This document shows positions 6,115 through 43,282 of a DNA stretch of 64,000 nt, one piece after another. The notes beneath the pieces were generated by a model, which worked only from the letters and a program-made list of their open reading frames with translations, made no database searches and had not been told where the DNA came from. Numbering within the stretch: position 1 is the stretch's first letter; the number at the start of each line of letters is the position of its first letter. The position numbers and the translations under genes were made by a program. Origin of the DNA: Arachis hypogaea (Eukaryota > Streptophyta > Magnoliopsida > Fabales > Fabaceae); contig NC_092052.1 in the NCBI RefSeq assembly GCF_003086295.3, positions 79,116,687-79,180,686 of the forward strand. The letters are read 5' to 3'.

Positions 6115-6141
6115 TTCTCAAAAATTTTTAACCACCGATAT

Positions 6142-15996: not shown

Positions 15997-16023
15997 TTCT
16001 CAAAAATTTTTAACCACCGATAT

Positions 16024-19868: not shown

Positions 19869-21639
19869 ATGGCCCAGCGTTCTGTCATGAGGGTCATGAG
19901 AATGCCCTACGATCGATACAGTTGGGTGACTTCGGATGTGAAGGAAACCCCCAACCAGATGTCTTTGGAGGAACTTATGGAGTTCCGACAAGCCGAGTAC
20001 CTCTGCGGGGAAGGAGACAAAGAGAATAACTTTGAGGTTTTTGTTCCCGTCGTCCAGGAATGGATATTCCAACTGAACCTACACTCTCCCCGGGTCCCCG
20101 ATTGGATCTGGTTTTACAAGGCAATATTCACCCACCTGGGGGTTCGCATCCCATTCTCTCCTTTTCAAATGGCACTGCTCAACCGATATGACGTGGCGCC
20201 ATCTCAGTTACATCCGAACAACTGGGCCTCCATCCGCTGTTTCGAAATGGTAAATGAGTATTTAGAGCTGCCGGCCTTCATCGAGGTATTTCTTTTTCTT
20301 TTTACCTTGACAAACCCTTCCAAAGAGGGGAGGGCCAAAAAGGGCTTTATGTCCTTCCGAGTAGCTCAAGGTCAGAGAACCTTCAACTTGTTCGAGGATT
20401 CTTATCACGGCTTTAAAGATAAGTACTTCAAAGTTCGCCCTGCTGAAGGTCGGCACCCCTTCTGGCTAACCTTGGAGGGGGAGCATCGCATCCCGACCTA
20501 CTGGAGTTTTGGGGCAAGGGTGAACGCCTTCACGAAGGTGACATACAAGGGGCTGTCTCCCGAGAATAAGAGGGTTGCCGACGTCTTGTTGGCTATATTC
20601 AGCAAGAACCATGTTAACCCCCACCTTCTTATGGGCGATCAAGACATGGCTAGGGGTTATGTAGGTGTGTGGTCGCTTGGTCCTTTGCTCGCGTTTATTA
20701 TTTGTATACTTGATTAACCATCTTGCCGACTAACGAGCTCTTGTTTGTTGTCGCAGCATCAATGGCTGGCGAACTGGTTAGACTTGATGCTTTGTTTGAC
20801 ACATTTCTTGCTGATGGCAGCGATGACGAGTCTGCCACCCATAATAACAAGGTTCCTCCCAACAATGCTGCTGAGGTCGAGGCTCAGTTCCAACCTATCT
20901 AGGGGGAGGTGATTGGGACCAGTGGTGGTCCGGGTCCCTAACCAGAGATCGAGGTTGAGGTTGAGGATGAAGGGCTTGAGGTGGTGGTTGTTGACAATCC
21001 GAAAAAAGGAAGACGTCTTCTAGCCCTGGTGGAGCCCTCCAGGTAATGGAGAAGAACTTCGACGCTGCGACCTTCATTGATGCTCAACTGCTTCCCGGCA
21101 CGGAGGACTTCTTCCATGGGGATCTCGCCTCGCAGGCTAGATGGATGTACCGTACCATGCTTCGGGGAGCCGCCGTGGCGAGAAAAGCGGAAACCGCCTT
21201 GGCAGGGGCGCAGTCGCTGGAGAACAAGCTTCAATCATCCATCCAGGCTAATGCCAAGTACAAAGAGGAGGTCAAGTCGCTCCAGATGCAGCTAGCCGAC
21301 GCCAAGGAGAAGATCAAGACCTCCGATGCTGCCGTGGCGCGACTCATCGAGCAGGAGCTCACCTTGGAGGGTCAGCTCAACGCTGCTCAAGGTCGGGTGA
21401 AGGAGCTCGAGAAAGAGCGTGATGAGGCTCTTTCGTCGGCAACCGCGGCCAAGAATGAAGTGGCTGATTTGAAAAAGAAGTACAAAGAGACCGTGAAACA
21501 GGGTAAGAATGCCATCTTGATGACTGAGGAGGCCTTCAAGGCTCAGGTGAAGTTGGTAGCTCCCGACTTTGATACCTCAACTGTTAGCATCTTCAAGACC
21601 ATCAAGGATGGCAAGATCGTTGATATCCCGAAGAAATGA
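19869..21639 (+). pseudogene. RT3 antisense accessory gene, two coding exons
   Basis: A gene on the strand opposite to RT3 pol, tail-to-tail with integrase. Exon 1 is 19869-20664 and exon 2 is 20757-21639; the spliced protein is about 559 residues. Exon 1 is fully open and carries a domain with PDWIWFYKAIFTHLGVRIPF, VAPSQLHPNNWASIRCFEM and KKGFMSFRVAQGQRTFNLFE, similar to the 'gypsy-type transposon' plant domain (Transposase_28-like, by recognition). Exon 2 has an acidic linker, then a long coiled coil (about 21180-21520) and a C-terminal motif VAPDFDTSTVSIF...GKIV. Lesions are TAG at 20900, TAA at 20939 (both probably former Gln) and loss of one A in the A run at 21002. A homologue with the same intron lies in RT6. 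Function is unknown. Confidence 0.75.
20665..20756 (+). other. Intron of the RT3 antisense gene
   Basis: 92 bases beginning GTGTGTGG and ending TTGTTGTCGCAG, with a plant-like branch point CGACTAACG about 25 bases before the acceptor. Removing it joins codon GTA plus G to CA TCA ATG GCT in frame (phase 1), giving ...GYVASMAGELVRLD. The RT6 gene has a 100-base intron of the same phase at the same place. Confidence 0.75.
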
Positions 21640-22191
21640 CGTGGTCTCACTTGTTGTATTTTGTATTTTTGTAATATGTTGGCCTTTGAATACTTTTAGT
21701 TTTAGTGAACTTGACTGCCGCTTTGCTGGTATATAACAAATTGCTCATCTACCATTTTGCTTGGTAAATGTTTTGTTCGATGTTTCTTACCATTTTATTG
21801 GTAGTTAGCTATTTGCTTATGCTTATTGACCGTTTCGTTGGTAGTTAGCAAAGCTAGGTCGTGACTTTTAGCATTTCAGTAGCCGTTTATTGTGGCATTT
21901 GTTACTTCTGTGGTTCCCAGGGTGATCAGTCCCGGGAGACCGTATCGTTCTGGCGCTGATTACTTGGCAAAGTAATTTGGTTAATTTGGATAACATTGAA
22001 TATGAAGAAAAAGTTGATGATGAATTGCAAATAAACAACAAATTGGAAATAAACAACTGCTGGCAAATAATATGAACATAAAGTAATAGCAAATAAATAA
22101 CAAAGAGCAAATAATCCCTCGTAAAGTGATACGGGTGTTACTAAACCAGTTAGACTGGCAGACCGGTTGCTCGGCCGGTGTGCCTCGGCTT
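21640..22191. other. Spacer between convergent RT3 genes
   Basis: 550 bases between the stop of the antisense gene (+) and the stop of integrase (-). Repeated short elements are seen: three close copies of tttgctggtat / tttgcttggtaaatg / ttttattggtagttagc at 21720-21850, and caaataa-type repeats at 22030-22120. No gene. Transcripts reading through from either side would overlap here. Confidence 0.6.
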
Positions 22192-23000
22192 CTAGGAATA
22201 GAATCTCCTTAGATTGCTCGCATTCCAGGTTCTGGGAACTTCCCTGCCATCTAGTCGTTCCAGCTTGTAAGCCCCATTGCCGAGAACCTCCTTCACCCTG
22301 TACGGTCCTTCCCAATTTGCTGCCAATTTTCCTTTCCCTGGCATCGGGTGTCCAACATCGTTACGACGTAAAACCAGGTCGCTCTGCTCAAACTCTCTCT
22401 TAAGTACTTTGGCATTGTAACGCAATGCCATCCTTTGTTTTAACGCCGTCTCCGACAAGTGGGCCATCTGTCTAGCTTCATCCACCAAGTCTTTTTCCAT
22501 GGCTTCTTCGACTCCTCCCAAAAGTAGTCGTGGGCTCGGTTCCCCGATCTCCACGGGTATTATCGCATCCACCCCATAGGTGAACCGGAAGGGCATCTCC
22601 CTTGTAGATGATTGTTGAGTTGTGCGATAGGACCAGAGGACTGAGGCTAACTTGTTTGCCCATGGTCATTTCTTTTCGTCAAGTCACTTTTTGAGGCCTT
22701 GTAGGATGACCTTGTTTGCAGTTTCGACTTGGCCATTAGTTTGGGGGTGCTCCACAGATGAGAACTTCTGCCTTATGCCCAAACTGACAAGAAACTCTCC
22801 GAATTTCTTGTCAGCAAACTGTCCATTGTCAGAGATGACGACTTCTGGGACTCCAAATCTGGCTATTACTTGTCTCCACATAAACTTCAGATAATTAGCC
22901 AAGGATATGCATGCCAGCGGCTCGGCCTCTACCCACTTCGTATAATAGTCGATGGCGATAATTAGGTACTTGACTTGTCCTGGTCCGACTGGGAAGGGCT
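22192..23000 (-). pseudogene. RT3 integrase, C-terminal two thirds
   Basis: From the RT4 junction at 23000 leftward the frame gives GPGQVKYLIIAIDYYTKWVEA (first catalytic Asp), EVVISDNGQFADKKF (second Asp) and SVEHPQTNGQVETANK (Glu). Two stops lie at about 22655-22683. The frame then runs to 22192 with the GKLAANWEGPYRVKEVL C-terminal motif and ends RRFYS. All three catalytic residues are present. The N-terminal zinc-binding part is at 46149-46600, across the RT4 insertion; about 50 residues between the halves are lost at the right-hand junction. Confidence 0.88.
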
Positions 23001-24528
23001 TGATAGAAAGAATTCCTTGATGGTCTAGAATTTCTCTTATAGGAAAGAATTTATTAGTTGTGAGTATAGCTCTAAACCAACAAACAATCCTCCCAATTAA
23101 AAATATTGGTTGTCACAAGTACAAATCCCAATAAGAAATTTTAACCGAAGTATTTAAACCTCGGGTCGTCTCACAAGGAATTGCAATGAAGTGCTCAATT
23201 ATTGGCTATGAAGATGCAAGGGGGTTTGATTTTTGGAAAAGATGCAAGAAAAGTAAAGGAACACCTAAAGAAAGCAGTTAATAAAAGAGAGACATCATTG
23301 GCAAGAATTAAGAATCTAAGCTTTCTATCCCAGTCACTAATAACAATAATTAACAAGAATTTATCTTATTACGTCATCCCCGACGATGGAAGAAGGTATC
23401 ATGTTATCTTTACACTCGAAGAAAATTTAATAAGAATAGCTAATCTCAATCCAAATGTCCTAATCAACTCACTAAGTGAATTAGCAAGAGATTAGAGTTA
23501 ATGGAAATCATACTAGCTAACAATTCTAGATCACCGACATAGTTGGGTCTTAATGACTCAAGATCACTTAGTTTCTCTTTCCAAGCCAAGAATGCTCAAA
23601 GATCTACTCTAAATCCCAACCAAGCATTTTGTCAAACACTTGGTGGGTATGAAAGGAAAACATAATAAATTGCAAAGGAAACAAGATCACCAACTCAAAT
23701 CATCAATAGAACATCAAACATCAAATTTGCATCAAAAGAGATCCAAATCCAACAATAGTTCATCATCACAAAAGAAAGCATTAGGTGAAATTAACAAGAA
23801 CACTAAGAGAAACAAAGGTGTAGAAACAAGAAATCACAATGGAAGTAAAATGAAGACAAGAATTGAACATGGATCTATAATGCAAATAACCCTAGAACCC
23901 TAATTCTAGAGAGAAGAGGGAGCTTCTCTCTCTAGAAACTAAACTACATGATGCTATTCTTCAAACAATTGCTCCCCCTTTGCTCAATCTTCAATACTGT
24001 ATGAAATACTCTCAGAAACGAGTTGGATTTGGGCCTGGGCAGCTCAGAAATTGCCTTCAGCGTTTTCACTTTAAGTGGGTCACATGCGAGCACCGACGCG
24101 TACAGATGGGTCTTGTGTACGCGTCACTTGGCAATTTGAAATCCATGCGTACGCATCATGTACGTGTACACATCGCCATGCGACCTCATCTTCACGCATG
24201 TGCGTTTGCTGCACGTGTGCGTCGCTTTAAGCACTCCAAATCCTTGTTTCTTCATGGATTCTCCACTATACATGCTTTTCTATTCACTTCTTCCATCCAA
24301 TACTTGCCTTATGAAACTGAGATCACTCAACAAACATAATAAGACATCGAATGGAATTAAAGTGAATCAAAATTAGCAATTTAAAGGCCTAAAAAGCATG
24401 TTTTCACTCTTAAGCACAAAATTAAGGAGAATTATAAAACCATGCTATTTCATTGAATAAATATGGGAAAAGAGTGATAAAATCCCCTAAATTAAGAACA
24501 AGATAAACCACAAAATTGGTGTTTATCA
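23001..24528 (-). repeat. RT4 3' LTR
   Basis: 1528 bases, reading on the minus strand from TGATAAACACC at 24528 to ...TTCTTTCTATCA at 23001. It is preceded on the element strand by the purine tract GTGTGGGGAGGTT. It contains CG-rich palindromes near 24095-24230 and the U5 block aaccgaagtatttaaacc (23142-23183). The same LTR is at 45029-46153 with scattered substitutions. Confidence 0.88.
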
Positions 24529-25256
24529 AACCTCCCCACACTTAAACTAAGCATGTCCTCATGCTTAAATCAAGAAAGAGGCAAAGGGTATCAACATTTA
24601 TTCAATGTAAACTATCTAAATGCAACTACCTACATGCAATCTATATGAATGCAATCACTTAGTCAAAATAAATCAAACTCCAAGAATACATACATAAGTG
24701 CAAGGGCTAAAGGTATTAACAACCAAGTCAGACCCACAATTGAATTGAATTATTGAGAAGAATTTACAAACTTGCAAGAAAAGATGATCGTGGGTGGAAA
24801 CATGTAATTGAGCGATCGAACCCTCCCCGGATGTGTATCCGCTCTATCCGCTCAAGTGTATGGGGTTGATTCACTCAATTCTCCCCTAATCATGCTTTCC
24901 AAGATTTGTTTTTCATCTAACAATCAACAGTTATTTCATGCATGCATACAAATATCATGAGGGCTTTCCCAAAGGTTGTAATGGGGTCAGGGTCAAGGTA
25001 AGATTGTATTTGGTCAAGTGAGCTTGAAATTTGAATCTTTGATCAACATAAGCTTCCCACGTAACCTATATAACAACCTATACAAGTTCGAAACTAACCT
25101 AACTACCCATTCTTCACTTTTCCACACACTCATGCATTTTCTTTTCACTTCACAACACATATGCATTGATTTTTATTGAACCTTACTTTGGGCCATTTTG
25201 TCCCCTTTTTATTGCTTTTCTTTTTCTTTTCTTTTTCTATATTTTTTTATTTATTT

Positions 25257-25279
25257 TGTATATATATATATATATATTT
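25257..25279. repeat. TA microsatellite
   Basis: About ten consecutive TA dinucleotides inside a T-rich tract. Probably variable in length. Confidence 0.85.
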
Positions 25280-26435
25280 TTTTTTTCTTTCTTTTTTTTG
25301 CAATAAACTATATGCAAAAGTATCAATGCATATGGTTTTACATTTAGTTAATACATGAGCATGTACCCAATTCCCAAATATAGAAATATAAAACACCTTT
25401 TTATCCCAATCAGTGTTTCCAAATCTCCCCAAAATCAAATGATAAGCACTCTCACTAGCATAAGCTAATCAAAGATCCAAACAAGGGACATTTATTATTT
25501 TTCACTTAAGGCTTATAATGTGCTAAAATTAAGAACAAATGGGTTAATCTTAGGCTCAAATTGGCTAACAATGAGAGATAAAAGGTAAGGTTATTTGGGT
25601 AAGTGAGCTATTTAAACAATGGCCTCAATAATATAAATGCATGTATACACAAGATAATGGACATATAGAATCAAACAAATCAAAGATTACAATCATAGAG
25701 AGAGAACAATGCACACAAGAAGGAAAATAAGTGGTTATATGACGTAACCACGCAATTAGGCTCAAAACTCACTTGCTTGAGTTCTTAGTTCAAAACATGT
25801 TCCACAATATACGTACTTCAAGCAAGTTCTCAAAAAAAATTTTTTTTCGAATCAATTGGGGTGCCTTATAGATAAAATTCTTGAAAAATATCATGATTTT
25901 GACTTAGCTTACTATATACATATGCAACACAAGAAAATGTAACAAAAATTCCTAAAATGAAATGCAAAAGTGTTGGGATTAGAAATTGTCACCCAAAAAT
26001 GCCGATCGGTCGAATGACCTCCCCACACTTAAAAGTTTACACCGTCCTCGGTGCATCCAATAATGAGCAAGGGGTACGGCGACTCTCCGACTTGCTACCT
26101 TCAGCTGGTAGGTCAACCGGTGCTGCGTGTTTTTCTCCTGATTCCATTTTTGCTTATGATAACTCATCCATAAAAAATAACAAATAGCACAAGAGATGAG
26201 AAAATGCAAGAGCAAGGAAGCATAAGTCAATAATAGGCAGCAATAAATAGCACAACACTAATGATCCAACACTTATAATGAGAAAAAAAATTAAACCCAA
26301 AATTAAACTAGCTAAATAACTGAGTAGGGGTTAATGCATGGCGTTTGGCAGTGTTGGATGATGGGTGGGAGAAGAGAAGAAGAGAGAAGAAGGAAAGAAA
26401 TGGAAAAAAGAGAAGAAAAGAAGGCGGATGGAAGG

Positions 26436-26660
26436 ATAGTCCACGCGTATGCGTGTGGCACGTGTACGCGTGGGTGGAACCAGAGAGAGGCGACGTGTAC
26501 GCGTGGGGCACGCATACGCGTGGATGGTATTGTACTAGAGGCACAAATCCAGCCCAAAACTCACACAACTCTCGGGTTTTAGTATGGAAGGTGAGGATGT
26601 TGGATCCACACGTACGCGTGGATGGTCGAAAAGCTAGGTTTCACGCGTACGCATGAGTTG
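26436..26660. repeat. Cluster of ACGCGTACGCGT-type palindromes (RT4 spacer)
   Basis: Six near-palindromes in 220 bases, for example ccacgcgtatgcgtgtgg, acgtgtacgcgtgg and cacgcgtacgcatg, in otherwise unremarkable sequence. The same motif type is in the LTRs of RT4 and RT7. Confidence 0.65.
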
Positions 26661-26923
26661 GTGACCTTTTTTCCAAATTTTTTCCAAGTTCTTGCACCAA
26701 ACCAAGCATTTCAAACCTCCAAACAACTACCAAAACACCATAAAACCTTATTTAACCTACTAGACTCCCAAATAAACACAAAAAACTAAACAAAACATAA
26801 AATTAAACCTATTTTACCAATATGTACAAAAAGGAAAAAGGGAAAGATGTTACCATGGTGGGGTGTCTCCCACCTAGCACTTTTGTTTATTGTCCTTAAG
26901 TTGGACTTATGGGGAGCTCTTCA

Positions 26924-28743
26924 TTAAGGTTGCTTGTGCTTGAATTCATCCTTGAACATCCACCAATGCTTGGACTTCCAATAGGCTCCATCATTTAAGA
27001 TTAATATCTCCAAGCTTTGATGGAGTTCTTCGTAAGCTATGACCTCCCAAAGTTGATTCTCTTTGTGCGATCTGGGATCCCACACTTTGTTCTCACACCC
27101 GTCTTCAAATTGGTCATCATGATTCCATACAGGCGGCAAGCAGTCCAAATTCTCATATAAGCGCCAAAGCATCCTCTTAGACCCCCTTAAGTGAGAACTA
27201 TACCAACTATTGCGCTTAGACTTTGAGCTTCTAACCATAATGAACCGTGAGTTAAGGTGTCTACCACTAACCAATTTTCTCCTACTCTTAACTCCACAAA
27301 AAGCTCTATGTTGTCCATCATTTTCAATCAAGCCATATTCAAGTAGAAAAGTAAAGCTTAGGGATAATAATTTTACCCACTTGAATGTTGTGTTAGATGG
27401 TGACTTAGGAAGGGGGACCTCCCCACACTTAGACAATGCGAGGTCCACTCTCTTTTGCTCTTCCTTTTCAACTTCCACCTCCTTGCAAGCTTCTTCAAAT
27501 TCAACCTCTTCCTTTTGGTCGCTTTCTTCCAATTCAAGCTCTTCATCATTGCTTACCAAGGGTATGGGAGGTGAGGTGTCTTCTTCTTTGATCTTTATGT
27601 CAAGTCTAATGGGAGAGGATTCAATTGTAGATAGGGATTCATCAATGATTGAATCCATTTCTTGATCAGCCTCTTCAAAGTCTTCCACCATGATATGTCT
27701 TGGAGATTGTACACCCTCCTCAATATCAATATCAAGCTTCCTGGAAGAGGACTCTTTACTCATACATCCCTATGGACTTCCAACATCTCTTAAATCTTTG
27801 ACTGTCCCCTCCGACTCAAGTGTCTCTACTTCCTCCCATTTGTTGTAGTTCTTGCTTCAACTCCTCTTCTACACCTTGAAGCTTTAAACTCACTCCCTCA
27901 CTATGCTCGTTGATTTTTCTACATCCATCAACAGGAGTGCCTTGATCGCCTAGGCTTAGGTAGGAGGATACTATGTTGCTGACGACTTCCGCCATGGTGG
28001 CAAGCACGTCTTCTAGCTTCTTGAACTCTTCTTGCGTCTCCTCTCCATGCCCCGTGAAGCTAGAAGAGATGTCTCATTGTCTTAGCACAAGGGAATGGCG
28101 ACCTTCGTCCATTGGAGGTGGTGTAGGAGGAGAGGTTTCATTGTTTGGGGGAAAGGGCTCATAATTGGAAGGTGGTTCAACAACTTCCACAAAATCATAA
28201 ACAATGTCACTTAGTGTGGAAGTGTTCTCAAACTTGGAATTCACCTCTTGCTCAACTTTGCCTAGCTCTTCAACCACTTTTTTTTATTAACAATCTCTTC
28301 CTCTTTCACCTGCATGACACACTCTATGCTCCGCTCTCTGGTTGATTCTCCACATTCACCCGTGGAAATGCTTTATCTGCGGTATGAATCCTATGCATCC
28401 ACATTGGTTTTAAATTTGGCAAAGTTAGCCTTGATAGTTTCTTTCATTCTTTGGGCTTCCTCTTGCTCTTTTTGGCGGATGATTACTTGAAGCCGATCCA
28501 CTGCTTCCTTGTAGTGATCCTTTGGCTCTTGTTCCACTTGACTAGCATAAGTAGGATCATGTTGCTCTTGGACCAATAGATATGGGTATTTTTCCATGGA
28601 GGGCTGTGGTGAAAAAGGGAGTTCATTTTGCGGTTGAAAGTCACCATACATTAAAGGCGGTTCCTCTTAGTAATAGCATGAAGGTGGTGATTCTTGAGAG
28701 TATTGGTAGTTGAATTATGGTGGTTCTTCATATGGTTCATATG
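26924..28743 (-). pseudogene. RT4 reading frame of unknown function
   Basis: A broken coding region running from 28743 to 26924. The first part (28743-28391) has YEPYEEPP, FNYQYSQESPPS and MYGDFQPQNELPF, with two TAA stops at former Gln positions, and a helical segment HYKEAVDRLQVIIRQKEQEE. Frames near 28277-28074 and 28007-27816 carry acidic and Pro-rich pieces. The last 279 codons (27763-26924) are very acidic, then turn basic with KSKRNSWYSSHLRGSKR, and end in a Trp-rich segment (WNHDDQFEDG, WDPRSHKENQLWEV, KHWWMFKDEF). I know no function for this family. It resembles an uncharacterised protein common in peanut annotation. Confidence 0.6.
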
Positions 28744-30811
28744 TGATGTGTGGAAAATGATCCAACACGAAACTCACCGGCAAGTGTACCGGGTCGCATC
28801 AAGTAGTAATAACTCACATGAGTGAGGTCGATCCCACAGGGATTGAAGGATTGAGCAATTTTAGTTTAGTGGTTAATTTAGTCAAGCGAATCAAGTATTG
28901 GTTGAGTGGTTTGTATTTGGCAGAAACTAAATTGCATGAATTATAAGGAGAGAAAGAAGAATTGCAGTAAATTAAAGAGAACAGAAAGTAAAGAAGCTAA
29001 ATCTTAAAGAACAAGTAATGTAGATTGCAGAAACTTAAATTGCAAGAAATGTAAATGGCTGAATCTTAAAGTGCAAGAAATGTAAATTGCTTGAATTATA
29101 AAAGGAATTGGGAATTGGGATTGCAGAATTTAAACAAGAGCAAGTGAATTGCAATTGAACAGAAGAGTAGAAGGTGAATTGAAGTAAAGTAGATCTAAAC
29201 AGAAAAGTAGAAATGCTTGAGAAATTAAAACAGAAAGTGACAGATGCTTAATTTGCAGCAATTAAAAAGATGTTGAAGATCTCAGGAGTGGAAGAGTCTA
29301 GAAAACAAGTCTAGATCTCAAATCCTTCCTTGATCTAGCAAGAACAATTGCAAAAGAAATAAAGAAAAGTAAATTGCAGAAAGTGTAGAAGAAGATGCAG
29401 TAAATAGAAATGGAATTGAATTATGCAGAAAAGTAAACAAGAGGTCTCAAAGTGAGATTGAAACAGAAGTTCTTCAATTCTCCACCCAAGATCCAAAGCA
29501 AGAAAATAAAAGAGTGCTCAAGCAAGAACAAGGAAGAAGAGAGATAAATTCCCCTTCCAAATTCTCTTAGATCTAAATTTAAAAATAAAAGCTCAAAATG
29601 AAAATGAAAGTTCAAAGAAAAATTCAAAGTAAAGTCTAGAGGTCCTAATTAAATCAAACTAGCTCCTATTTATACACTTTCTATTCTTGGATTTTAGAAT
29701 TTGGATGGGCTTTTTAATTTGGTGAAGATTTAAATTTAATTGGATTTTTGAATGAATTTCAGCCCATGTGAAAGTTGCTCCCAGGAGGATGCTCTGCTCA
29801 TGTGGGGAGCAGAGCATTGGAGCCTTGTGTGGGGATCCTTTGTTGCATCCAAGGCTGGGAGAAGCATCAGGGGAATGCTCCACTCATGTGGGGAGCGGAG
29901 TATTGGGGCCTTGTGTGCATGTCTTGTGCGCCTTGTGCTCCCTGGCCGTGTCAAATGTTGCACGCCTTGCTTCCCTGGACCGTGTCAAGCATGCTTGTGT
30001 GTGCCAAGCTTCAGCGCTCTGCTCTCCTTGTGAGCTGAGCATTGGTGCTTCCAAGGGGAGGTCCTTGGTTCGAAACTTGAGGGAAGCATGCGCTGGTGCC
30101 ATTTCCTTGGTTTCTTGTATTGCCTTTGCTCCTTGCTTCCTTAAGGTGTTGAGTTCGAATCTTGGGGGTGGCATTTGGCCAATTTTTGGCTTGTTTTCCT
30201 TGTGAGTAGCGCTCTCCTTCTTCCCTTGGGTCATGGGTTCAAACCTTGGAGCAAGCATTGGCAACTTATTTCCTTTGATTTATTTTTGGTGGAAGCCTGA
30301 TAATGCTCCCAAGGAGAGCTGAGCATTGCTTTTCCTTTCCTTGTTTCTTGTTTCTCAAATTGTGCTCAGCTCTCAAGGGGAGTAGAGCATTGAAGCTTGC
30401 CTCCTTGGTTCATTGTTGCGCTCCCTTGGAGAGCACTGGGCTCTTGGGGAGAGCTTCGTGGCTTCCCTCCTTTCATGTGCCACACTTCTCAATTCCCTTT
30501 GCCACATTATTTTCTTTTTTGGGCCACACTTCTTAAGCCACGCTTTCTTATTTTCTTCTTTTCTTCACCTACAAGAAATCAAAACAACCAATCAAAGTAT
30601 CACCAAATTCACAAAGTTTATAAATCATTAAAAATCAATTAAATTTAGCTTAAACCTCATGATTTAGCATCAATTAAATGGTGGTTATTTGATTCAAAGA
30701 AACCATACATTTCCATTCCAAATTACTTACTTAGAATGCAAGAAAGTTCATAAAACCTAATAAAAATAAAGAAAAAGACTAGTAAAACTAGGCTAAGATG
30801 ACTTGTCATCA
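28744..30811 (-). repeat. RT5 3' LTR
   Basis: 2.07 kb, reading on the minus strand from TGATGACAAGTCATC at 30811 to ...CCACACATCA at 28744. A purine-rich tract (ggggacaagcaagttttaag on the minus strand) precedes it. It holds the U5-like block at about 28779-28850 and, at 29780-30470, several copies of a motif like gagcagagcattg. Open frames there are not conserved coding sequence. Confidence 0.85.
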
Positions 30812-33760: not shown

Positions 33761-33781
33761 CAATCCCTGGCAACGGCGCCA
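33761..33781 (-). other. RT5 primer binding site
   Basis: The minus strand reads TGGCGCCGTTGCCAGGGATT. This is complementary to the 3' end expected of plant tRNA-Asp with one mismatch, and lies six bases from the LTR end. This fixes RT5 on the minus strand. Confidence 0.8.
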
Positions 33782-33787
33782 AAAACT

Positions 33788-34485
33788 TGATGTGTGGAAA
33801 ACGATCCAATACGAAACTCACCGGCAAGTGTACTGGGTCGCATCAAGTAGTAATAACTCACATGAGTGAGGTCGATCCTACAGGGATTGAAGGATTGAGC
33901 AATTTTAGTTTAGTGGTTAATTTAGTTAAGCGAATCAAGTATTGGTTGAGTGGTTTGTATTTGGCAGAAACTAAATTGCATGAATTATAAGGAGAGAAAG
34001 AAGAATTGCAGTAAATTAAAGAGAACAGAAAGTAAAGAAGCTAAATCTTAAAGAACAAGTAATGTAGATTGCAGAAACTTAAATTGCAAGAAATGTAAAT
34101 GGCTGAATCTTAAAGTGCAAGAAATGTAAATTGCTTGAATTATAAAAGGAATTGGGAATTGGGATTGCAGAATTTAAACAAGAGCAAGTGAATTGCAATT
34201 GAACAGAAGAGTAGAAGGTGAATTGAAGTAAAGTAGATCCAAACAGAAAAGTAGAAATGCTTGAGAAATTAAAACAGAAAGTGACAGATGCTTAATTTGC
34301 AGCAATTAAAAAGATGTTGAAGATCTCAGGAGTGGAAGAGACTAGAAAACAAGTCTAGATCTCAAATCCTTCCTTGATCTAGCAAGAATAATTGCAAAAG
34401 AAATAAAGAAAAGTAAATTGCAGAAAGTGTAGAAGAAGATGCAGTAAATAGAAATGGAAATTGAATTATGCAGAAAAGTAAACAA
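33788..34485 (-). repeat. RT5 5' LTR, truncated
   Basis: About 700 bases matching 28744-29440 closely (for example cgatcc for tgatcc near the start). It breaks off at 34485 inside gtaaacaa, where RT6 LTR sequence begins. The missing part (about 1.37 kb) includes the promoter region. Confidence 0.88.
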
Positions 34486-34879
34486 AGGAACACGGCCCAA
34501 ATCTAAAGGCAGCCAAAGCCTAGAAAGATAAGGACGGTTCCCCTTAAAGATAAGATAACTCCACCCAAAGATAAGATAAGATAACTATCTTATCTCCAGA
34601 AAGGTCACTCCACACCATTATAAATACACTGGAGCACCCAGGTATAACTCATACTCTGATTCTACAAAAAAACCTGCCTAATACCCTGGCTAACTTAAGC
34701 ACCGGAGTCCTTTGTAGGTAGCACCACCTTCCGGTGACGAAGGATCAGCACCACCGCCGATTTCAACAAGTCGGACACAGCGGCTCCGGCCACCCTCTGC
34801 AAGTCGGACACATCAGCACCGACCAGCACAGAAGATCTCGTCTGAGATCGACTTACAGTTTCAGGTAACCCTCAGAACA
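34482..34879 (+). repeat. RT6 5' LTR, truncated at its 5' end
   Basis: Matches 44490-44886 of the 3' LTR. The first 130 bases or so (TGTTCATGTCC...) are missing, replaced by RT5 LTR sequence. A TATA box TATAAATA is at 34619-34626, so the core promoter survives but the upstream U3 does not. A run of gataagataa repeats lies just before it. Confidence 0.9.
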
Positions 34880-34880
34880 A

Positions 34881-34898
34881 TGGCACCGTTGCCGGGGA
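34881..34898 (+). other. RT6 primer binding site
   Basis: TGGCACCGTTGCCGGGGA, one base after the LTR end AACA. It differs from the tRNA-Asp-type site TGGCGCCGTTGCCGGGGA by a single A for G, a change expected from deamination. Confidence 0.85.
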
Positions 34899-34920
34899 AC
34901 CTGGAAGTCATCCCATCATC

Positions 34921-36200
34921 ATGGCGGATAAACTTGATAACGACCACGACTCTGATCTAGAAAATAGGACGCTGCATAAGAACGCAGACACTACACCAAA
35001 TGATACTTCTCAGCCAAATAAAGAAAAGAATTCGCCAAGCACAGAAATCATGGAGGCGCTTCAAGCTCAACAAGATCGTCTCAAACAGCTCGAAAAAGAG
35101 GTCGAGCATCAACGCGAAGCCGAGAGGGACCTACGAAGGGAAACCAGGCGACGCCGAGAATTAGAGGACAAGCTCCTAAAGCTTGAAGCCGATCTCAAAA
35201 CCAAGACTACCCGATCCAGTCATGAAGATAGCCCCCACAAAGATCAAGACCCATTCACCAAAGAGATCATGAAAGCCAAAGTTCCAAAAGACTTCAAAGC
35301 TCCCGACATGATCCCGTACAATGGCACATCAGATCCAAGCCATCATTTCAGCAATTTTAGAAGCAGAATGTATCTCACCGATGCCTCGGATGCTGTTCGA
35401 TGCAAAGCCTTCCCAGCAACACTAACAAAAATAGCAATCAAGTGGTTCGACACTTTGCCCCCCAGATCCATTATAAATTTTGACGACTTGGCCAAGAAAT
35501 TTTTTGCCCGATTTTTCATCCAGAAGGACAAAGCCAAACACGCCCCAAGCCTCTTAGGAATCAAACAGGGAGATCAGAAGAATCTTCATAGCTACATGGA
35601 GAAGTTCAACAAGCATGCCTGGACATACAAAGCCTACCAACAGAAGCAGCCATTATAGGTCTCATCAATGGCCTGTGAGAAGGACCTTTTAATCACTCCA
35701 TATCAAAGAAACATCCAACATCTCTGAAAGAAGTGCAAGAACGAGCTGAGAAGTACATCAACATGGAGGAAAACTCTCGGCTAGGAGAGACCTCAAAATC
35801 CAAATTCTCTTACTCCTCCCTGGATAAGGAAAAAGAGTCCAAGAAAAAAGAAGATCAATACGGCGAGAAGCCTAAAAAATACAACAACTATACCCCTCTC
35901 CGGGTGTCTCTTGTGGATGTTTACCGAGAAGTATGCCATACTGAAAAGATACCACCACCTCGTCCCCTCAAAAGCAAGAAAGAAGGAGGAAATTAGACAG
36001 AATACTATGAATATCACCGAATCTACGGACATCCTACCAATGAATGCTTCGACTTGAAAAATGTTATTGAGAAATTGGTAAGAGAAGGATGACTAGATCG
36101 GTATTTAACCAACAAGTCGGATGAGCCTCGAAAAAGAAGATGGGACGAAGAGGCCGGATGAAGAGAACGACCACCTCACACCCCAGAGAGACACGTTCAC
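34921..36200 (+). pseudogene. RT6 gag
   Basis: Starts at ATG 34921 (MADKLDNDHDSD), shortly after the primer site. A strongly charged coiled coil (residues about 40-100) is followed by the gag core with VPKDFKAPDMIPYNGTSDP, CKAFPATLTKIAIKWFDTLPP and KKFFARFF. A frameshift near 35625 and a stop shortly after break it. The frame at 35733-35996 then carries NYTPLRVSLVDVYREV. A degenerate zinc-knuckle region YYEYHRIYGHPTNECF follows at about 36000-36050, with Tyr where RT3 has Cys. Stops at 35994, about 36090 and about 36160 separate it from the protease. Confidence 0.85.
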
Positions 36201-36890
36201 ATGATAAACGGAGGATTCACAGGAGGGGGGATCTCAAAATCATCTCGCAAAAGGCACCTCAAAGAAATATATCATGTTGAGGGAAGAGAAGGATCACCCG
36301 ACCTCCCTACAATTACTTTCACCCAAGAAGACGTGGCAGGCATCATCTCGGGAGATGACGATCCTATGGTCATCACTATCATATTGGCCAATGCAAATCT
36401 CCACTGCACACTGGTTGACAAAGGAAGCTCAGGGGATATTTTGTTTAAGCCCGCCTTTGATAAACTTGGCTTGCAGGAGAAAGAACTTAGAGCGTATCCA
36501 AACAGCTTGTTTGGACTCGGAGACACTCTAATTTAACCACTTGGATACATCTCACTACACACAACCTTCGGAAAAGGAACCCGATCAAGGACACTCAACA
36601 TAGACTATATTGTGGTCGATGTAAGTTTAGCCTACAATGCCCTGATAGGTCGGGCAACATTGAATCAGCTCACAGCAGTAGTTTCAACTCCGCATCTATG
36701 CATGAAATTCCCAACTCCAGAAAGGATTGCTACGATAAAAGGAGATCAGAAGATAGCGCGATGCTATTACAATGAAAGTCTGAACCTCAGAGGCAAAGGG
36801 GAAGAAATCCACACCATCGAACTCGGGGGAGTTCGAGATCGGGAAGAACTCCGTCCAGAACCTGAAGGCGAGATCGAAGAAGTCCAAATC
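36201..36890 (+). pseudogene. RT6 aspartic protease
   Basis: The frame includes SPDLPTITFTQEDV, then the active-site region TLVDKGSSGDILF. The Thr of the DTG catalytic motif is Lys, so activity is doubtful. A TAA stop at 36534-36536 splits it. Downstream AYNALIGRATLNQL, the flap and C-terminal motif of plant gypsy proteases, is intact. RT9 retains a normal DTG in the equivalent place. Confidence 0.82.
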
Positions 36891-38416
36891 GGAGATGACC
36901 AGGACAAAACAACAAATATCAGGGTAACCTTAAATGAGGACGTAAAGAAGCCCTTGATACAATTCCTAAGGGATAATGTCGACCTATTCGCATGGAGGGC
37001 TGCAGACATGCCGGGCATAGACCCCAAGCTAATGTGCCATAAACTGGCAGTATACCCAGGATCTCGGCCAATGCAACAGAAGCGTAGGAAGCTCGAACCG
37101 GAAAGATCCAAAGCTATGGAAGAATAGGTACAAGCTCTACTGGAGGCAGGATTCATAAGAGAAGTCAAGTACCCCCTATGGCTAGCCAATGTTGTCTTGG
37201 TGAAAAAATCAAATGGAAAATGGCGGATGTGCATTGATTACACCGACCTCAATAAAGCTTGCCCAAAAGATCCCTATCCACTCCCAAATATCGACACTCT
37301 AGTGGATGCCTCCTCTGGATATAAATACCTCTCGTTCATGGACGCTTATTCAGGATACAATCAAATCCCAATGTATCCACCTGATCAGAAAAAACCTCAT
37401 TCCTAATTCCTAAAGCAAATTACTACTATGTTGTCATGCCATTTGGACTAAAAAATGTAGGAGCTACCTACCAGAGATTGATGAAAAAATTCTTCGCAGA
37501 CCATATCGGGAAACTCATGGAGGTATATGTGGACGACATGTTGGTAAAAACACAAGGCGAGGAGACATTACTGTCTGACGTTGCCCAAGTGTTCGATACC
37601 CTCAGAAAGCATGACATGCGACTTAACCCTGCAAAGTACACATTTGCAGTAGAAGCTGGGAAATTCTTGGGTTTTATGCTAACATAACGAGGAATTGAGG
37701 CGAATCCAGATAAATGCCGGGCTATACTCGACATGAAAAGCCCAATCTATGTCAAAGAGGTACAACAACTCAATGGAAGACTGGCAGCCTTGTCCAGATT
37801 TTTAGCTGGATCAGCCAAAAGATCCCTCCCCTTCTATGCCACTCTAAGGAAAGGAAAGAAGTTTGAATGGACAACGGAGTGTGAACAGGCTTTCCAGGAT
37901 TTCAAAAGGTTCCTGGGACGACCACCTATTCTAACTCGACCATGGGAAGGAGAACCACTCGTACTGTACCTCGTAGTAGGAAATCGAGCAATGGCCTCAG
38001 CACTAGTTAGAGAAGATGAGAGTGGACAACAGCCTATCTACTTCATCAGCAAAGCCCTACAAGGGGCCGAGCTAAACTATCAAAAGATAGAAAAGTTCGC
38101 CTACGCTCTTATACTAACTTCTCGACGACTTCGACCATATTTTCGAGCTCACACGATCAAAGTCCGGACTAACCAGCCCATAAAAGGCATTCTACAGAAA
38201 ACAGATTTAGCCAGAAGAATTTTACAGTGGGCAGTCAAGCTATCTGAGTTCAACCTTCCATATGAAGCTCGGACGATGATCAAGTCCCAATATTTGGCCG
38301 ATTTCATTGCTGAGTACACTGACACTCTGAGAATTCCCACAGAATGGAATATCTATGTAGACGGCTCTTCAAACAAAACCGGAAGTGGCGCGAGCGTGAT
38401 AATAGAAAGCAATTAG
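36891..38416 (+). pseudogene. RT6 reverse transcriptase and RNase H
   Basis: RT motifs appear in order: LFAWRAADMPGIDP, ANVVLVKKSNGKWRMCIDY, SFMDAYSGYNQIPM, VMPFGLKNVGATYQ and the catalytic EVYVDDMLVKT (YVDD intact). Lesions are TAG at 37125, an extra A in the A run near 37390, and TAA at 37685. RNase H follows with LVLYLVVGNRAMASALV and QPIYFISKALQGAEL. At several of these stops RT3 has glutamine, so they are point changes in an otherwise conserved gene. Confidence 0.9.
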
Positions 38417-38790
38417 GGAACCCAAATCGAACTTTCCCTCAAATTCGGGTTCCCTGCTTCAAACAGCTAGGCCAAATATGAGGCACTACTAGCTGGTTTG
38501 AAGCTGGATAAGGAGGTTGGAGCTTAAAAGCTTATCATCTTCAGCGACTCACAAGTAGTCACCTCACAAATAGCAGGAGCTACCAAGCCAAGGATCCCAC
38601 CATGAAAAAGTACTTGGACAAAATCAGGGAACAGCTCGGATAACTCGGGGAATATGAGGTCCGCCACATACCTCAGGAATAGAATGTTCGAGCTGATGCA
38701 CTCTCAAAACTAGCCAGCACTAAATCAGGGGGCAACAATAGAAGCCTCATCCAGGAAATACTGCAAAACCGGTCAATCTCAGAAGAAGAC
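38330..38790 (+). pseudogene. RT6 second RNase H-like domain
   Basis: WNIYVDGSSNKTGSGASVII, AKYEALLAGL and IIFSDSQVVTSQIAG follow the first RNase H. This extra RNase H is a known mark of Tat-lineage elements. Stops: TAG 38414, TAG 38468, TAA near 38525, TAA near 38640 and TAG near 38680, plus a frameshift near 38580. RT3 has the same domain at about 46600-46960. Confidence 0.8.
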
Positions 38791-40059
38791 AAGGTCCTAG
38801 CCATAACAGGTCTGGATCAAGGATGGATGACTCCCATAATTAACTACCTCAAAACAGATACACTCCCTACAGATAAGAAGGAGGCGAAGAGATTAAAACG
38901 GGAGGCACAATACTACACCATCATAAACAATACTCTATACAAGAGAGGGATTTCAACACCACTGTTAAAATGTGTGCCGACTTCCAACACAAAGAAAATT
39001 TTAGAAGAAGTACATAGTGGCATCTGTGGCAACCATCTCGGAGCACGGGCTCTCGCCAAAAAAGTACTCCGAGCCAGATTCTATTGGCCGACTATACAAA
39101 AGAAAGCAACAAAGTTCGTAAAGATATGTCCACCATGTCAGAAACATGCTAATTTTTACATCGCCCCACCAGAGCACCTCATCAGCATAACCTCACCCTG
39201 GCCATTTGCAAAATGGGGACTCGACCTCCTTGGGCCCTTTCCTCAAGGATCTGGACAAGTCAAGTTTCTCATCGTAGGGGTAGACTATTTCACAAAATGG
39301 ATTGAGGCAGAGCCCCTAGCTAACGCCACTGCTCAAAGAAGTCAAAAATTCCTATATAGGAACATTGTCACAAGGTTTGGGGTTCCTTACTCCATTACCA
39401 CAGACAATGGCACTCAATTCACAGACGCAGGCTTTAGAAAATTGGTGGCCGACTTGAAAATAAAGCACCAATTCACTTCCGTAGAACACCCCCAGGCTAA
39501 TGGATAGGCAGAAGCCGCAAATAAAGTCATATTAGCCAGGCTAAAACGGAGATTACAGGATGCAAAGGGAGCCTGGGCTGAAGAACTTCCACAAGTCCTA
39601 TGGGCATATCGGACAACTCCACACTCCACTACAAGGGAATCACCTTTTCGACTGGCTTACAGAATGGAGGCAATGATCCCAGTGGAGGTCAAAGAAGGAT
39701 CCCCCAGAACGATCTACTACAGTGAAGAGGCCAACTCCCAACTTCAAAAGGAAGAGCTCGACCTACTTCCAGAAATCCGATAAAGAGCTCGGATCAGGGA
39801 GGAAGCGTTAAAACGTCGAATGGCCTCAAGGTACAACCAGAAGGTAGTACAGGAAAATTTTTCCAACAACGACCTCATCCTAATCCGAAATGATATCGGA
39901 ACAAGTCGACCAGGAGAGGGGAAGCTAGCAGCTAACTGGAAAGGACCCTACCGAGTCATAGAGGTACTCGGAAAAGGCTACTACAGGCTGTCCAAACTCG
40001 AGGGGCGAGAGCTACCAAGGTCATGGCACGCCTGCAACCTAAGAGGGTATTATAGTTAG
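38791..40059 (+). pseudogene. RT6 integrase
   Basis: The zinc-binding region GNHLGARALAKKVLRARFYW...CPPCQKHA is followed by the catalytic core: Asp in IVGVDYFTKWIEAEP, Asp in SITTDNGTQFTDAGF and Glu in the segment after SVEHPQANG. A TAG at 39505 falls inside that last motif; RT3 has Gln there. A TAA near 39781 is the only other break. The C-terminal motif GKLAANWKGPYRVIEVLGKG and the final LRGYYS are intact, and the stop is at 40057-40059. Confidence 0.9.
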
Positions 40060-40239
40060 GAGGTAATAAAGATCTTAGGTCAAGGTGCACTCTTTTTCCT
40101 AAGAAGGTTTTTTAACGAGGCACCAAGCCAAGATCTATAAACTACCTGACTTAGAAGGGTAAACACCCGCATGTATATATTTTCCAATTTGTCTACTTTC
40201 TATTTGGAATAAAACTTTTCAGATTTCTTCTACAAAGCC

Positions 40240-40421
40240 TCTCTATAGGTTGGCAAGATGAAAAACAAATCATCACCCGACCACGATGAAAATCGAATTC
40301 ATCGTTTGATTTTGACAAGGGTCGACAAAGTGAAAACCAAATTCACTGCTCGATCAAGACAAAGCTACAGGTCGGCAAGGTGATGATCAAACTCATCATT
40401 CGATCACGATAAAATCGACAA
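40240..40421 (+). repeat. Three degenerate ~60-70 bp repeats with small inverted repeats
   Basis: Units begin gttggcaagatg, ggtcgacaaagtg and ggtcggcaaggtg. Each contains a short palindromic core such as gtgaaaaccaaattcac or gatgaaaatcgaattcatc. They lie directly after integrase in RT6 and precede a second array. Confidence 0.65.
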
Positions 40422-40890
40422 AGTTATAAAAAAGTAATCCATAAGCTGAGGCCTGGCTAGCCCTGACTAAAAAATGGATTACTAATAACTTAAGAACGGA
40501 CCGACATGAAGAAGTCGGACCAATCGACCAAAGCAACAAAAAGTTATAAAAAGTAATCCATAGAAGGAAGCCTGACGAGGTCTGAGAAAAAATGGATTGC
40601 TATAACTTGGATGGACCGACATGGAGAAGTCAGATCAGATTGATCAAAATGACACAAAGTTATAAAAATTAATCCATAGAAAGAGGCCTGATCAGCCCTT
40701 ATCAAAAGTGGATTAATAGAAATAACTTAGAAGGGATCGACATGAAGAATTCGGCCCAAGCCGATCAAAAGCAACAGAGTTATAGAAAGTAAATCCATAA
40801 GAAGAGACTCGCGAGGTCCAACTAAGAATGGATTACTAAAAATAACTCGCAAGACTCAACGAAAGAAGTCGACCGACAGAAGACATGCAC
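40422..40890 (+). repeat. Four tandem ~120 bp hairpin-forming repeats
   Basis: Unit starts (agttata) are at 40422, 40542, 40658 and 40778, so spacings are 120, 116 and 120. Each unit has agttataaaaagtaatccat near its start and its approximate inverse atggattactaataactt about 50 bases later. Units 1-2 also have ccgacatgaagaagtcgg. Tandem arrays at this place, between pol and 3' LTR, are typical of Tat/Ogre elements. Confidence 0.85.
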
Positions 40891-41328
40891 TAGAAGGGAC
40901 ACAGCTCGACCCAAAGAAAGCCACGACCTCTCCCAAAATCGATTCACAAGTGTTTTATGAGAATACTAAAAAGAACAGTCAAACAAGGCTAGCCTCAAAA
41001 GGTCACTTCGACCAAAGCAGGAAATAAACCAACACAAAAGAAATAAAAAAAAGGGGTCGGCCAGAAAAAAGCTCCAACACTCTTAAGATTCTTGGAAGCC
41101 CCAAAAAGATTGCAAACAAAACACATCAAGAAGAAAAGCAAAGCTACTATAATCAACACTCAGAAGGCCACTCGAAGGTCGACCTCAAGAGTTCAAAGGC
41201 ATTTATTTTTCTAAATAAAGTTGCTAAGAAAAAAGCAACTACAAAATCATAGTCAAACAAACTACAAGCTACAGAAAATAGAGTTCAAAGACCCACAAAA
41301 CTGGGCCATTAAGATACAGAAGCAAAAA
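40891..41328. other. RT6 spacer between tandem repeats and antisense gene
   Basis: A-rich, non-coding. Together with the repeats it separates the convergent 3' ends of pol (+) and the antisense gene (-). No gene seen. Confidence 0.55.
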
Positions 41329-43282
41329 CTACAAAGGATTCAAAGATTCTCCAGTAGCGGCATCTCGAGGCGAAGGAGGAAGAGTCGCGAGGGGGACAGC
41401 GTCGACAGTCTCATCTGCCCGATTCAAGATCTGAACATCAGGATCCAACTCGGGGTGGCCGACCTCAGCTGTAGGCGTTGGAGAAGTCGGGTCAATAGAA
41501 GCCTTGGTGGATGGCACAGGAGGTGGGTCTATATCATCATCATCTTCATCCGGGGCAGGGACGATTTTCCCATTTTCCACAATATTGTCCAAACTGAAGA
41601 AAGACAGGTCAAGCTCGGGAGCAAGAACTCGGACCTGATCCTTTAAATTCTCATAAGCAGAAGTCACACTACCCACGAGATGACCCTGAAGCTCGGCATA
41701 ATCAGCCCGAGCGGATTCCAACCTCTCTCTGAGCTCTATCACCTCACCATAAGCCCGGACATAGCTATCCTTATGCATATGCGCCATCTCCTCAGCCAGG
41801 TTTCTAGAAGCCACCGTAGTAGTAGCCCAAGTCTTCTCACCTTCCAACTCTTTTTCCAGCTTAGCCAACTTCACCTCAAGCTCCTTCTTCAACCCCTTGA
41901 TCTGGTCGAATTCCGACTTGGCCTCCTCCGTAAAAGCCTTTGTCGCATGAACAGGAAGATCCTGGGCAGTTCGGAACAAGGCTGCTCCCATGTGTGCCAT
42001 CTTAATACTGCTTTGGGTAATGAAGTCCAGATAATAAAGAATGGATACATCATCAGTAGGAACAACACCATAAGGAGCAATTTGATGATCAACAAACCTC
42101 ACATCATCAAAATCAGGGGCGTCCAAATTAAAGGGCTCAATAGTCCTCTGTCTTTTTGGAGGAGGGCCAGCAGTGGGAGAAGAGGTAGCAGCTGAAGTTT
42201 GGGGAGGATCAACCAAATGAACTTGAGGAGTAGGAATCACCCTCCTCGGCCCAAAAGTGCTCAAGATTGGTTTCTTAGGAGGAACCTGAGAAGATCCTTC
42301 CCCACCAGCCTTAGCGGAGATGTTCTGGGCGGCTGTAGCTTTCCTTACCTTCTTAAAGGCCTTCATGGAATCATTAGTCTTCGCCATCTCTGAAAAAATA
42401 AAATGGGATCAGCAAAAGACAAGTTACAAATTGGAAGAAAAGGAACAAAATTAACAAAGACAAACAAGTAAAAAGAAGTCGACCACTACCTAGCTATGCT
42501 CGGAGAAGTGAGGGATCCACTAAAAACCTCTTAGTATCGAGATGAGGAGGTTACCCCCAATTCTCCTCCAACACATTCACAAAGGCCTGTTCGACCTCAT
42601 CTAGCATCTCCCACGAATATCTAGAGACTACAACATTCTTTTGCTAACATAAGGGGAAGGCAGGTTCATTATTTGACTCCAAGAAAAACGGCCAAGCTCC
42701 TTCAACAGATCAGACCTTAAAGTAATAATTCTTAAAGTCCCTAAAGGACTCATCATACATGGAAAAAGCTTTCTTTCCCTGGGCAGATCGGAAAGAAACC
42801 CAAAAAGCTTTCTTCTTTGAAGAAATCCCAGGCTTAGTCAAAACAAAGAGATAAAGAAAGAGGGTTTAAGAAGGCTTAACATTTAGTTCTTGACACAATA
42901 ATTGAAAGATCTTACTAAAGCCCCATGAGTTCAGATGAAGTTGGGATGGAGCTACATTACACGACCATAACAAATCGGTCTCGAAGGATGTAAAAGGAAT
43001 GGTAATGTTCATTTGGCTGAAAAAATAGTCATAAGCAAAAAAGAAGGGATGTTCCCCCTGGATCGGAGAAGGAAAACAAACCCTCTCATCAGGGTCAGGC
43101 GCTACCAACTCATAGTTCTTCTCTTGATCTCTACTACTACAGATCTGGTGATGCTTTCTAAGCTCTACACAGTATTCAGAATTAACCACGGAAACACACA
43201 TCAGGACGAGGGAGTCCAGCAAGTCAGACATGCCCTCGGGGACTTTGGAGGATGTCTCGATAATATTTTTGTGAGAAGACAT
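41329..43282 (-). pseudogene. RT6 antisense accessory gene, two coding exons
   Basis: Homologue of the gene at 19869-21639. Exon 1 runs 43282 to 42490 and exon 2 runs 42389 to 41329. Spliced length is 1854 bases, exactly 618 codons. Exon 1 shares IPFTSFETDLLWSCNVAPSQLHLNSW and TLFLYLFVLTKP...SFRSAQGKKAF with RT3 and stays in one frame throughout, broken only by five stops. Exon 2 is completely open: a nuclear-signal-like PPPKRQR near residue 345, a coiled coil LKKELEVKLAKLEKELEGE, then VRVLAPELDLSFFSLDNIV..GKIV, matching the RT3 C-terminal motif, and an acidic Pro-rich tail. Function unknown. It lies downstream of integrase and on the opposite strand, as in RT3. Confidence 0.78.
42390..42489 (-). 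other. Intron of the RT6 antisense gene
   Basis: On the minus strand, exon ...GCTAG, GTAGTGGTCG ... TTTTATTTTTTCAG, then AG ATG GCG AAG. Donor and acceptor match plant consensus. Length is 100 bases and phase is 1, as in RT3. Exon 2 alone starts with an ATG, so an unspliced or internal start product is also possible. Confidence 0.75.

What the first reader, a model, noticed from the sequence alone, without database searches (positions are those of the whole stretch)
19869..43282. Spliced antisense gene conserved in two Tat-like retrotransposons
Both RT3 (19869-21639, +) and RT6 (43282-41329, -) carry a gene downstream of integrase on the strand opposite to pol. The two proteins share several motifs in exon 1 (VAPSQLH.N.W, LTxP...SFRxAQG), a coiled coil, and a C-terminal motif (LAPELD../VAPDFD.. 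then GKIV). In each, an intron of 92 or 100 bases in phase 1 lies one or two codons before a Met-Ala. In RT6 the spliced length is exactly 618 codons, and exon 1 stays in one frame despite five stops. Conservation of intron place and phase in diverged elements implies a real, spliced gene under past selection. Extra ORFs, some antisense, are known in Tat elements; a conserved intron and this domain layout may not be described.
Basis: partly seen in the sequence, partly recalled or inferred. Interest (0 to 1): 0.9.

Follow-up and report, generated by a model that had tools for sequence, protein, structure and literature searches.

The report
Spliced antisense gene in plant retrotransposons
Two old, broken plant jumping genes in this window each carry an extra backward-running gene that is split by an intron at the same place, and relatives in peanut and a pasture legume show the same split, so a gene type already known from such elements appears to be a properly spliced gene whose two halves belong together.

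Summary
RT3 (19869-21639, +) and RT6 (43282-41329, -) carry homologous two-exon genes antisense to pol (exon 1: 34% identity over 178 aa, E about 1e-29), with GT...AG introns of 92 and 100 nt at the same place and phase. Both copies are decayed. The gene is the known Retand antisense ORF with the Transposase_28 domain (PF04195: RT3 E 2.7e-9; complete RT6-type relatives E 8.9e-11 and 1.2e-8), surveyed by Vicient 2025. What looks undescribed is the conserved intron. Of 175 related proteins fetched, 137 reach the end of exon 1, and 116 of these join exon 2 at exactly this point. Models that miss the join mostly read into intron or use another acceptor, with the next residue that a fixed GT donor would give. 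Four RT6-type models join unrelated starts, two of them from host genes, to the same exon-2 residue. Exon 2 adds a KRxR nuclear-localisation-like motif (91 of 102), a coiled coil and a conserved C-terminus. Most likely product: a nuclear accessory protein from a spliced antisense mRNA. No RNA evidence was available; named relatives are only Arachis and Stylosanthes; function is inferred.

The parts
19869..20664 (+). RT3 antisense gene, exon 1, with the Transposase_28 domain (about 20127-20309)
   Evidence: Open frame; PF04195 E 2.7e-9, 37.6 bits against cutoff 26.2
20665..20756 (+). RT3 phase-1 intron, 92 nt, GT...AG, CTAAC branch-like site (A near 20733)
   Evidence: site fixed by relatives
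20757..21639 (+). RT3 exon 2: Met-Ala start, acidic linker, basic EKRK motif (near 21001-21012), coiled coil, C-terminal VAPDFD...DGKIVD motif; broken by two stops and a frame change
22192..22665 (-). RT3 integrase C-terminal end, opposite strand to the gene
   Evidence: weak SH3_Tf2-1 match below the curated cutoff; integrase-like sequence continues to 22999 (by eye)
42490..43282 (-). RT6 antisense gene, exon 1 (Transposase_28-type domain), five stops
   Evidence: PF04195 weak in the first piece (E 0.01, 16.5 bits, below cutoff); complete relatives P0157 and P0163 pass the cutoff
42390..42489 (-). RT6 phase-1 intron, 100 nt, GT...AG, CTGAT branch-like site (A near 42409)
41329..42389 (-). RT6 exon 2, open: Met-Ala start, PKRQR nuclear-localisation-like motif (KRQR at 42145-42156), coiled coil, LAPELD...GKIV motif
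34482..34880 (+). RT6 5' LTR (approximate ends)
   Evidence: 94.0% identical to 44489-44887 over 399 bp
44489..44887 (+). RT6 3' LTR (approximate ends)
34846..35658 (+). RT6 gag
   Evidence: PF03732 E 4.2e-8
37688..38416 (+). RT6 RNase H part of pol
   Evidence: PF17919, PF17917
38683..39507 (+). RT6 integrase
   Evidence: PF00665, PF17921
40418..40806 (.). RT6 tandem repeat, period 116, 3.3 copies, between pol and the antisense gene

Best explanation
Both loci are decayed copies of one accessory gene of Tat/Retand-type Ty3/gypsy elements, lying antisense between pol and the 3' LTR. Supported by sequence: the gene has two coding exons and a short phase-1 spliceosomal intron inherited from the common ancestor of the RT3-, RT6- and Stylosanthes-type families. 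Exon 1 encodes one globular domain that contains Transposase_28; exon 2 encodes a linker with a nuclear-localisation-like motif, a conserved block, a coiled coil and a conserved C-terminus. Inferred: an antisense transcript from the element's own promoter is spliced, which attaches the globular domain to the nuclear and oligomerising tail, and the protein acts in the nucleus, probably as an oligomer on element DNA, chromatin or the pre-integration complex, to regulate the element. The intron can survive rounds of retrotransposition because the genomic RNA carries its complement, which has no splice sites for it; only the antisense mRNA loses it.
For: Same intron place and phase in two diverged copies; codon-position pattern. 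Exact exon joins: 110 of 130 RT3/Stylosanthes-type and 6 of 7 RT6-type proteins that reach the exon-1 tail, out of 175 fetched. Of the 20 other RT3/Stylosanthes-type models, 17 have G or C as the residue right after exon 1, as a split N|GT codon allows; 9 of the 20 look like read-through into intron, and P0013 and P0121 skip exactly four codons, as a downstream CAG acceptor would cause (sorted by eye). P0155 (ADH_N_2, 'isoform X3') and P0160 (FSH1, 'isoform X1') are host-gene models, and P0165 and P0174 carry other starts without a Pfam match; all four join exon 2 at the same residue. NLS-like motif 91 of 102, shuffled expectation 4.6. RT6-type proteins are set apart by a branch of 1.14 (support 0.996) and share the join. 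Nuclear location of Grande GENE23 and its own promoter: as reported in PMC7264820.
Against: No RNA read was seen; all relatives are gene models or called ORFs, and gene finders tend to bridge two open frames. That alternative RefSeq isoforms rest on transcripts is recalled, not checked. No relative's DNA was obtained, so intron lengths and splice letters outside the window are not seen and no dN/dS was done. Named relatives come only from Arachis and Stylosanthes; Stylosanthes makes up most and its models share one annotation. 20 of 130 and 1 of 7 models do not join exactly. Both window copies are broken. The RT6 first exon-1 piece alone is below the PF04195 cutoff. The exon-1 model is of middling quality and matches no known fold, so DNA binding is unsupported here.
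Confidence: 0.8

Rival explanations
1. Two separate antisense ORFs (a Transposase_28 ORF and a coiled-coil ORF started at the conserved Met-Ala), with the gap an untranslated spacer and the joins made by gene-prediction software.
For: Six RT6-type models start at that Met (P0147, P0148, P0151, P0154, P0161, P0167); the published survey finds ORFs with ORF Finder and counts 104 antisense ORFs, 57 of them with the domain; ATGGC is a good plant start context (recalled).
Against: Joins fall on one residue across families and sources; mis-joined models show intron-like sequence and mostly one donor position; two host-gene models join the same exon-2 residue. The Met is replaced in 4 of the 110 exact joins, and Leu +10, Leu +13 and Arg -4 are as conserved as the Met.
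Confidence: 0.1
2. The antisense transcript matters as RNA (double-stranded RNA, silencing or interference with reverse transcription), and the protein is secondary.
For: Antisense RNA roles are proposed for plant LTR elements in PMC7264820.
Against: Codon-position pattern, domain and motif conservation and a frame-keeping intron point to a selected protein. Both roles can coexist.
Confidence: 0.1
3. Independent indels in two dead copies mimic an intron.
For: Both copies carry stops or a frame change; several GT-AG pairs could fuse the frames.
Against: Same place, phase, size class and splice signals in both, and exact joins in 116 of 137 relatives.
Confidence: 0.01

Closest known systems
Retand-lineage antisense TRP28 (Transposase_28, PF04195) ORF, Vicient 2025 (PMC11963269; parts 1-3 of 5 of the text read, plus a word search)
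   Same: Antisense between pol and the 3' LTR; PF04195; other antisense ORFs with Smc-like matches and tandem repeats in the same region; LTR and internal sizes fit RT6
   Different: The paper finds ORFs with ORF Finder; the word intron does not occur in its main text. Here the globular domain and the coiled coil are two exons of one gene
Common bean ORF2 elements, Gao et al. 2014 (PMC4093653; passages read)
   Same: Antisense protein of 211-939 aa in 15 common bean Ty3/gypsy families, some with an SMC match; related hits reported in soybean, Medicago and Lotus
   Different: Predicted with FGENESH and GENSCAN, so some may already be spliced predictions; intron and splicing are not mentioned (word search); homology to RT3/RT6 not tested
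Maize Grande gene23 (Gomez-Orte 2013; not held, seen only as described in PMC7264820)
   Same: Antisense, own promoter, nuclear protein
   Different: Whether it is spliced was not seen; sequence not compared
Ogre and EVADE introns (passages in PMC6317226 and PMC12786077)
   Same: Functional introns in plant LTR retrotransposons
   Different: Those introns act on the transcript that encodes gag-pol; here the intron is on the opposite strand
HTLV-1 HBZ (antisense gene with nuclear protein as described in PMC11963269; its splicing and bZIP nature are recalled)
   Same: Works alike in outline: antisense spliced retroelement gene, nuclear coiled-coil protein
   Different: No homology known or tested; no basic region next to the coiled coil was seen here

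Membership tests
Retand antisense TRP28 gene | Antisense ORF between pol and 3' LTR | tested here: met
   RT6: gag, RNase H and INT on +, gene on -, before the 3' LTR. RT3: integrase end on -, gene on +; no RT3 LTR was found
Retand antisense TRP28 gene | PF04195 above the curated cutoff | tested here: met
   RT3 37.6 bits vs 26.2; RT6 first piece 16.5 bits, below, but its relatives P0157 (42.3) and P0163 (35.5) pass; 53 of the 66 rows of A2 match at E 0.01
Retand lineage | Reverse transcriptase groups with Retand in a tree | not tested
   No RT tree was made; no RVT_1 match in the four RT6 ORFs scanned
Retand lineage | LTR 315-1194 bp, internal region 7.4-12.9 kb, long pol-3'LTR region, often tandem repeats | tested here: met
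   RT6: LTR about 399 bp, internal about 9.6 kb, INT match ends near 39.5 kb and 3' LTR starts 44489, repeat array at 40418-40806; ranges from PMC11963269
Retand/Tat lineage | Second (archaeal-type) RNase H | tested here: inconclusive
   One RNase H region found; the following stretch is frame-broken and was listed but not scanned; the feature is recalled
Plant antisense accessory genes (Grande type) | Own promoter and nuclear protein | not testable with these tools
   Only an NLS-like motif in 91 of 102 relatives
Spliced retroelement genes | Splicing shown in RNA | not testable with these tools
   No RNA data; gene-model joins only

The most novel reading that the evidence does not exclude
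The intron is ancestral to Retand elements across flowering plants, so the Transposase_28 and Smc-like antisense ORFs listed separately are exons of one ancient, spliced, nuclear regulator, an HBZ-like gene evolved independently in plant retrotransposons; its intron persists because antisense placement hides it from the genomic RNA, and its acceptor also captures host exons.
Probability: 0.45. Interest if true: 0.75.

Novelty: new variant of a known kind. Interest (0 to 1): 0.55.

Why it matters
A 2025 review (passages read) states that plant LTR retrotransposons generally lack introns, with exceptions including Ogre and EVADE. A conserved intron on the antisense strand would add a class of retroelement gene and explain how it keeps an intron through RNA-based copying. 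It would change annotation: two antisense ORFs become one protein of about 600 aa with a nuclear-localisation-like motif, which makes the unknown role of the Transposase_28 protein testable with the right construct. It also warns that these exons can leak into host gene models.

Tried and rejected

Counting notes: the alignment search listed only the best 120 of 304 hits. Of 175 proteins, 38 lack an exon-1 tail by my score cut and were dropped from the join count. first counted 109 of 130 as joined with a Met; on the full listing, P0080, P0115 and P0140 were moved out and the four joins without Met (P0042, P0069, P0107, P0139) added, giving 110 of 130 (106 with Met). This sorting, and the calling of read-throughs, was by eye. 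P0014 also ends in Gly after the tail but by a shifted join, so it is not counted among the 17. One search kept only sequences with Met, or Ile-Ala or Lys-Ala, at that place, so its Met count is biased. The 102 proteins are those in which a hand-made pattern for the conserved block was found at least 50 residues in. The tree was rooted on the RT6-type proteins by my choice. In one search the RT3 exon-2 query was one base off frame; the comparison was redone in frame.

Papers: the ten searches listed no title or start of abstract, and I read no passage, that describes an intron in this gene; only openly licensed PMC papers are held, most hits were not opened, and two papers I asked for by id were not held: the Grande gene23 paper and, by a DOI from recall, the extra-ORF paper.
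Full report
What is there. RT3 and RT6 each have a gene on the strand opposite to pol. In RT3 it runs 19869-20664 / 20757-21639 on +, and an integrase frame ends on - at 22192. In RT6 it runs 43282-42490 / 42389-41329 on -, while gag, RNase H and integrase are on + and a pair of 399-bp LTRs (34482-34880, 44489-44887; 94.0% identical) encloses everything. The introns are 92 and 100 nt, GT...AG, phase 1, T-rich, with a CURAY-like site 23 and 19 nt from the AG. RT3 exon 1 is open and its exon 2 broken; RT6 exon 2 is open and its exon 1 has five stops. A second, 99% copy of the RT3 exon 1, intron and start of exon 2 at 9972-11021 belongs to a probable assembly duplication and is not independent.

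Is it more than chance? The exon-1 proteins are 34% identical over 178 aa (E about 1e-29), exon 2 weaker (25% over 204 aa, E 1e-8 to 1e-6). Over 173 aligned codons, identity is 0.50, 0.63 and 0.32 at positions 1, 2 and 3, against about 0.25 for shuffled pairing: the mark of a protein under constraint. The splice site is not unique from these two sequences alone, since 9 and 21 GT-AG pairs nearby keep the frame. Relatives settle it.

Relatives. Three searches of about 5.8 billion proteins gave 175 distinct proteins (one search listed 120 of its 304 hits). By a scripted search for the end of exon 1, 137 of 175 reach it: 130 of RT3/Stylosanthes type and 7 of RT6 type. In 110 of the 130 the next residues are the exon-2 start at exactly the expected place (106 with Met at +3, 4 with the Met replaced; full listing). 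In 6 of 7 RT6-type proteins the join equals that of RT6; P0153 has one extra residue. P0157 and P0163 run through the join, and RT6 matches them in spacing.

The exceptions argue for an intron rather than against it. Of the 20 that do not join exactly, 9 look like read-through: P0002, P0003, P0005, P0006 and P0007, and the Stylosanthes models P0079, P0080, P0115 and P0145. In 17 of the 20 the residue right after exon 1 is G or C, as expected if the split codon is completed by GT. P0013 and P0121 lose exactly four codons, as an acceptor at the CAG of ATGGCAG would cause. P0007 contains 29 extra residues at the junction, which would be an intron of 87 nt that is open and in frame. The sorting is by eye on protein sequences; the DNA was not seen.

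Independent use of the acceptor. In P0155 an ADH_N_2 reductase start, and in P0160 an FSH1 hydrolase start, run straight into exon 2 at the same residue; both are named as isoforms (X3 and X1) of Arachis genes. P0165 and P0174 have other starts, without a Pfam match, joined at that residue, and P0175 joins a short start of exon 1 to it. That such isoform models normally rest on transcript alignments is recalled knowledge and was not checked.

Architecture of the product. Exon 1: a domain of about 200 residues with Transposase_28 inside it; the better AlphaFold2 model (mean pLDDT 69.7, pTM 0.74) is a mixed helix and strand domain with no significant match among solved or viral predicted structures. 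Exon 2: Met-Ala-Gly start with conserved leucines, an acidic and Ser/Pro-rich linker, a K-R-x-R type motif within 50 residues before a conserved FDASGFI-like block in 91 of 102 proteins (4.6 expected by shuffling), a coiled coil, and a C-terminal LAPDFD...DGKIVD motif. Splicing therefore attaches the nuclear-type and oligomerising tail to the globular domain.

Age of the intron. In a tree of the exon-1 domain (74 sequences, rooted by choice on the RT6 type) the two RT6-type proteins are separated from all others by a branch of 1.14 substitutions per site (support 0.996), and both sides share the join. The intron thus predates the split of these families. Whether it reaches beyond Arachis and Stylosanthes was not tested.

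How it most likely works. Shown by sequence: antisense placement, two exons, constraint, shared join, motifs. Inferred: own promoter (reported for Grande gene23 in PMC7264820), splicing in the nucleus, nuclear action as an oligomer, regulation of the element. The intron is invisible to the genomic RNA, which is its complement, so it is not lost by reverse transcription; this is an argument from mechanism, not a test.

Known and new. Vicient 2025 (PMC11963269; parts 1-3 of 5 and a word search) reports antisense Transposase_28 ORFs in 97% of Retand clusters, plus other antisense ORFs, some with Smc-like matches, found with ORF Finder; the word intron does not occur in its main text. Neumann 2019 (PMC6317226, passages) found the domain in 23% of Retand elements. 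Gao 2014 (PMC4093653, passages) describes antisense ORF2 in 15 bean families, some with an SMC match. Vicient and Casacuberta 2020 (PMC7264820; parts 1-2 of 3 and a word search) call for a look at antisense and spliced transcripts. A 2025 review (PMC12786077, passages) names Ogre and EVADE as exceptions to the rule that plant LTR elements lack introns. The conserved intron and the one-gene architecture appear undescribed in what I could search; two papers I asked for were not held.

Verdict.

Noticed in passing
2071-11021 and 12050-20929: 98.5% identical stretches on both sides of a 1000-N gap (11022-12021): probably an assembly duplication, which also explains the second copy of RT3 exon 1.
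   Followed up: partly
23000-24125 and 45028-46153: 95% identical direct repeats look like LTRs of a roughly 23-kb nested insertion that contains RT6; integrase-like pieces just outside (ending at 46154, starting at 22999, both on -) look like two parts of RT3 pol, but some tens of residues seem to be missing and I saw no target-site duplication.
   Followed up: partly
P0155, P0160 (proteins): Element exon 2 appears as an exon of two Arachis host-gene models (reductase and serine hydrolase): apparent exonisation of a retrotransposon antisense exon.
   Followed up: partly
P0007 (protein): One relative seems to have an intron of 87 nt that is open and in frame, so retention would add 29 residues.
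   Followed up: no
43330-43391: Short tandem repeat (period 22, 2.8 copies) just upstream of the RT6 antisense start, possibly in its promoter region.
   Followed up: no
41202-41207 (-): AATAAA about 120 nt after the RT6 antisense stop, a possible poly(A) signal on the antisense strand (by eye).
   Followed up: no
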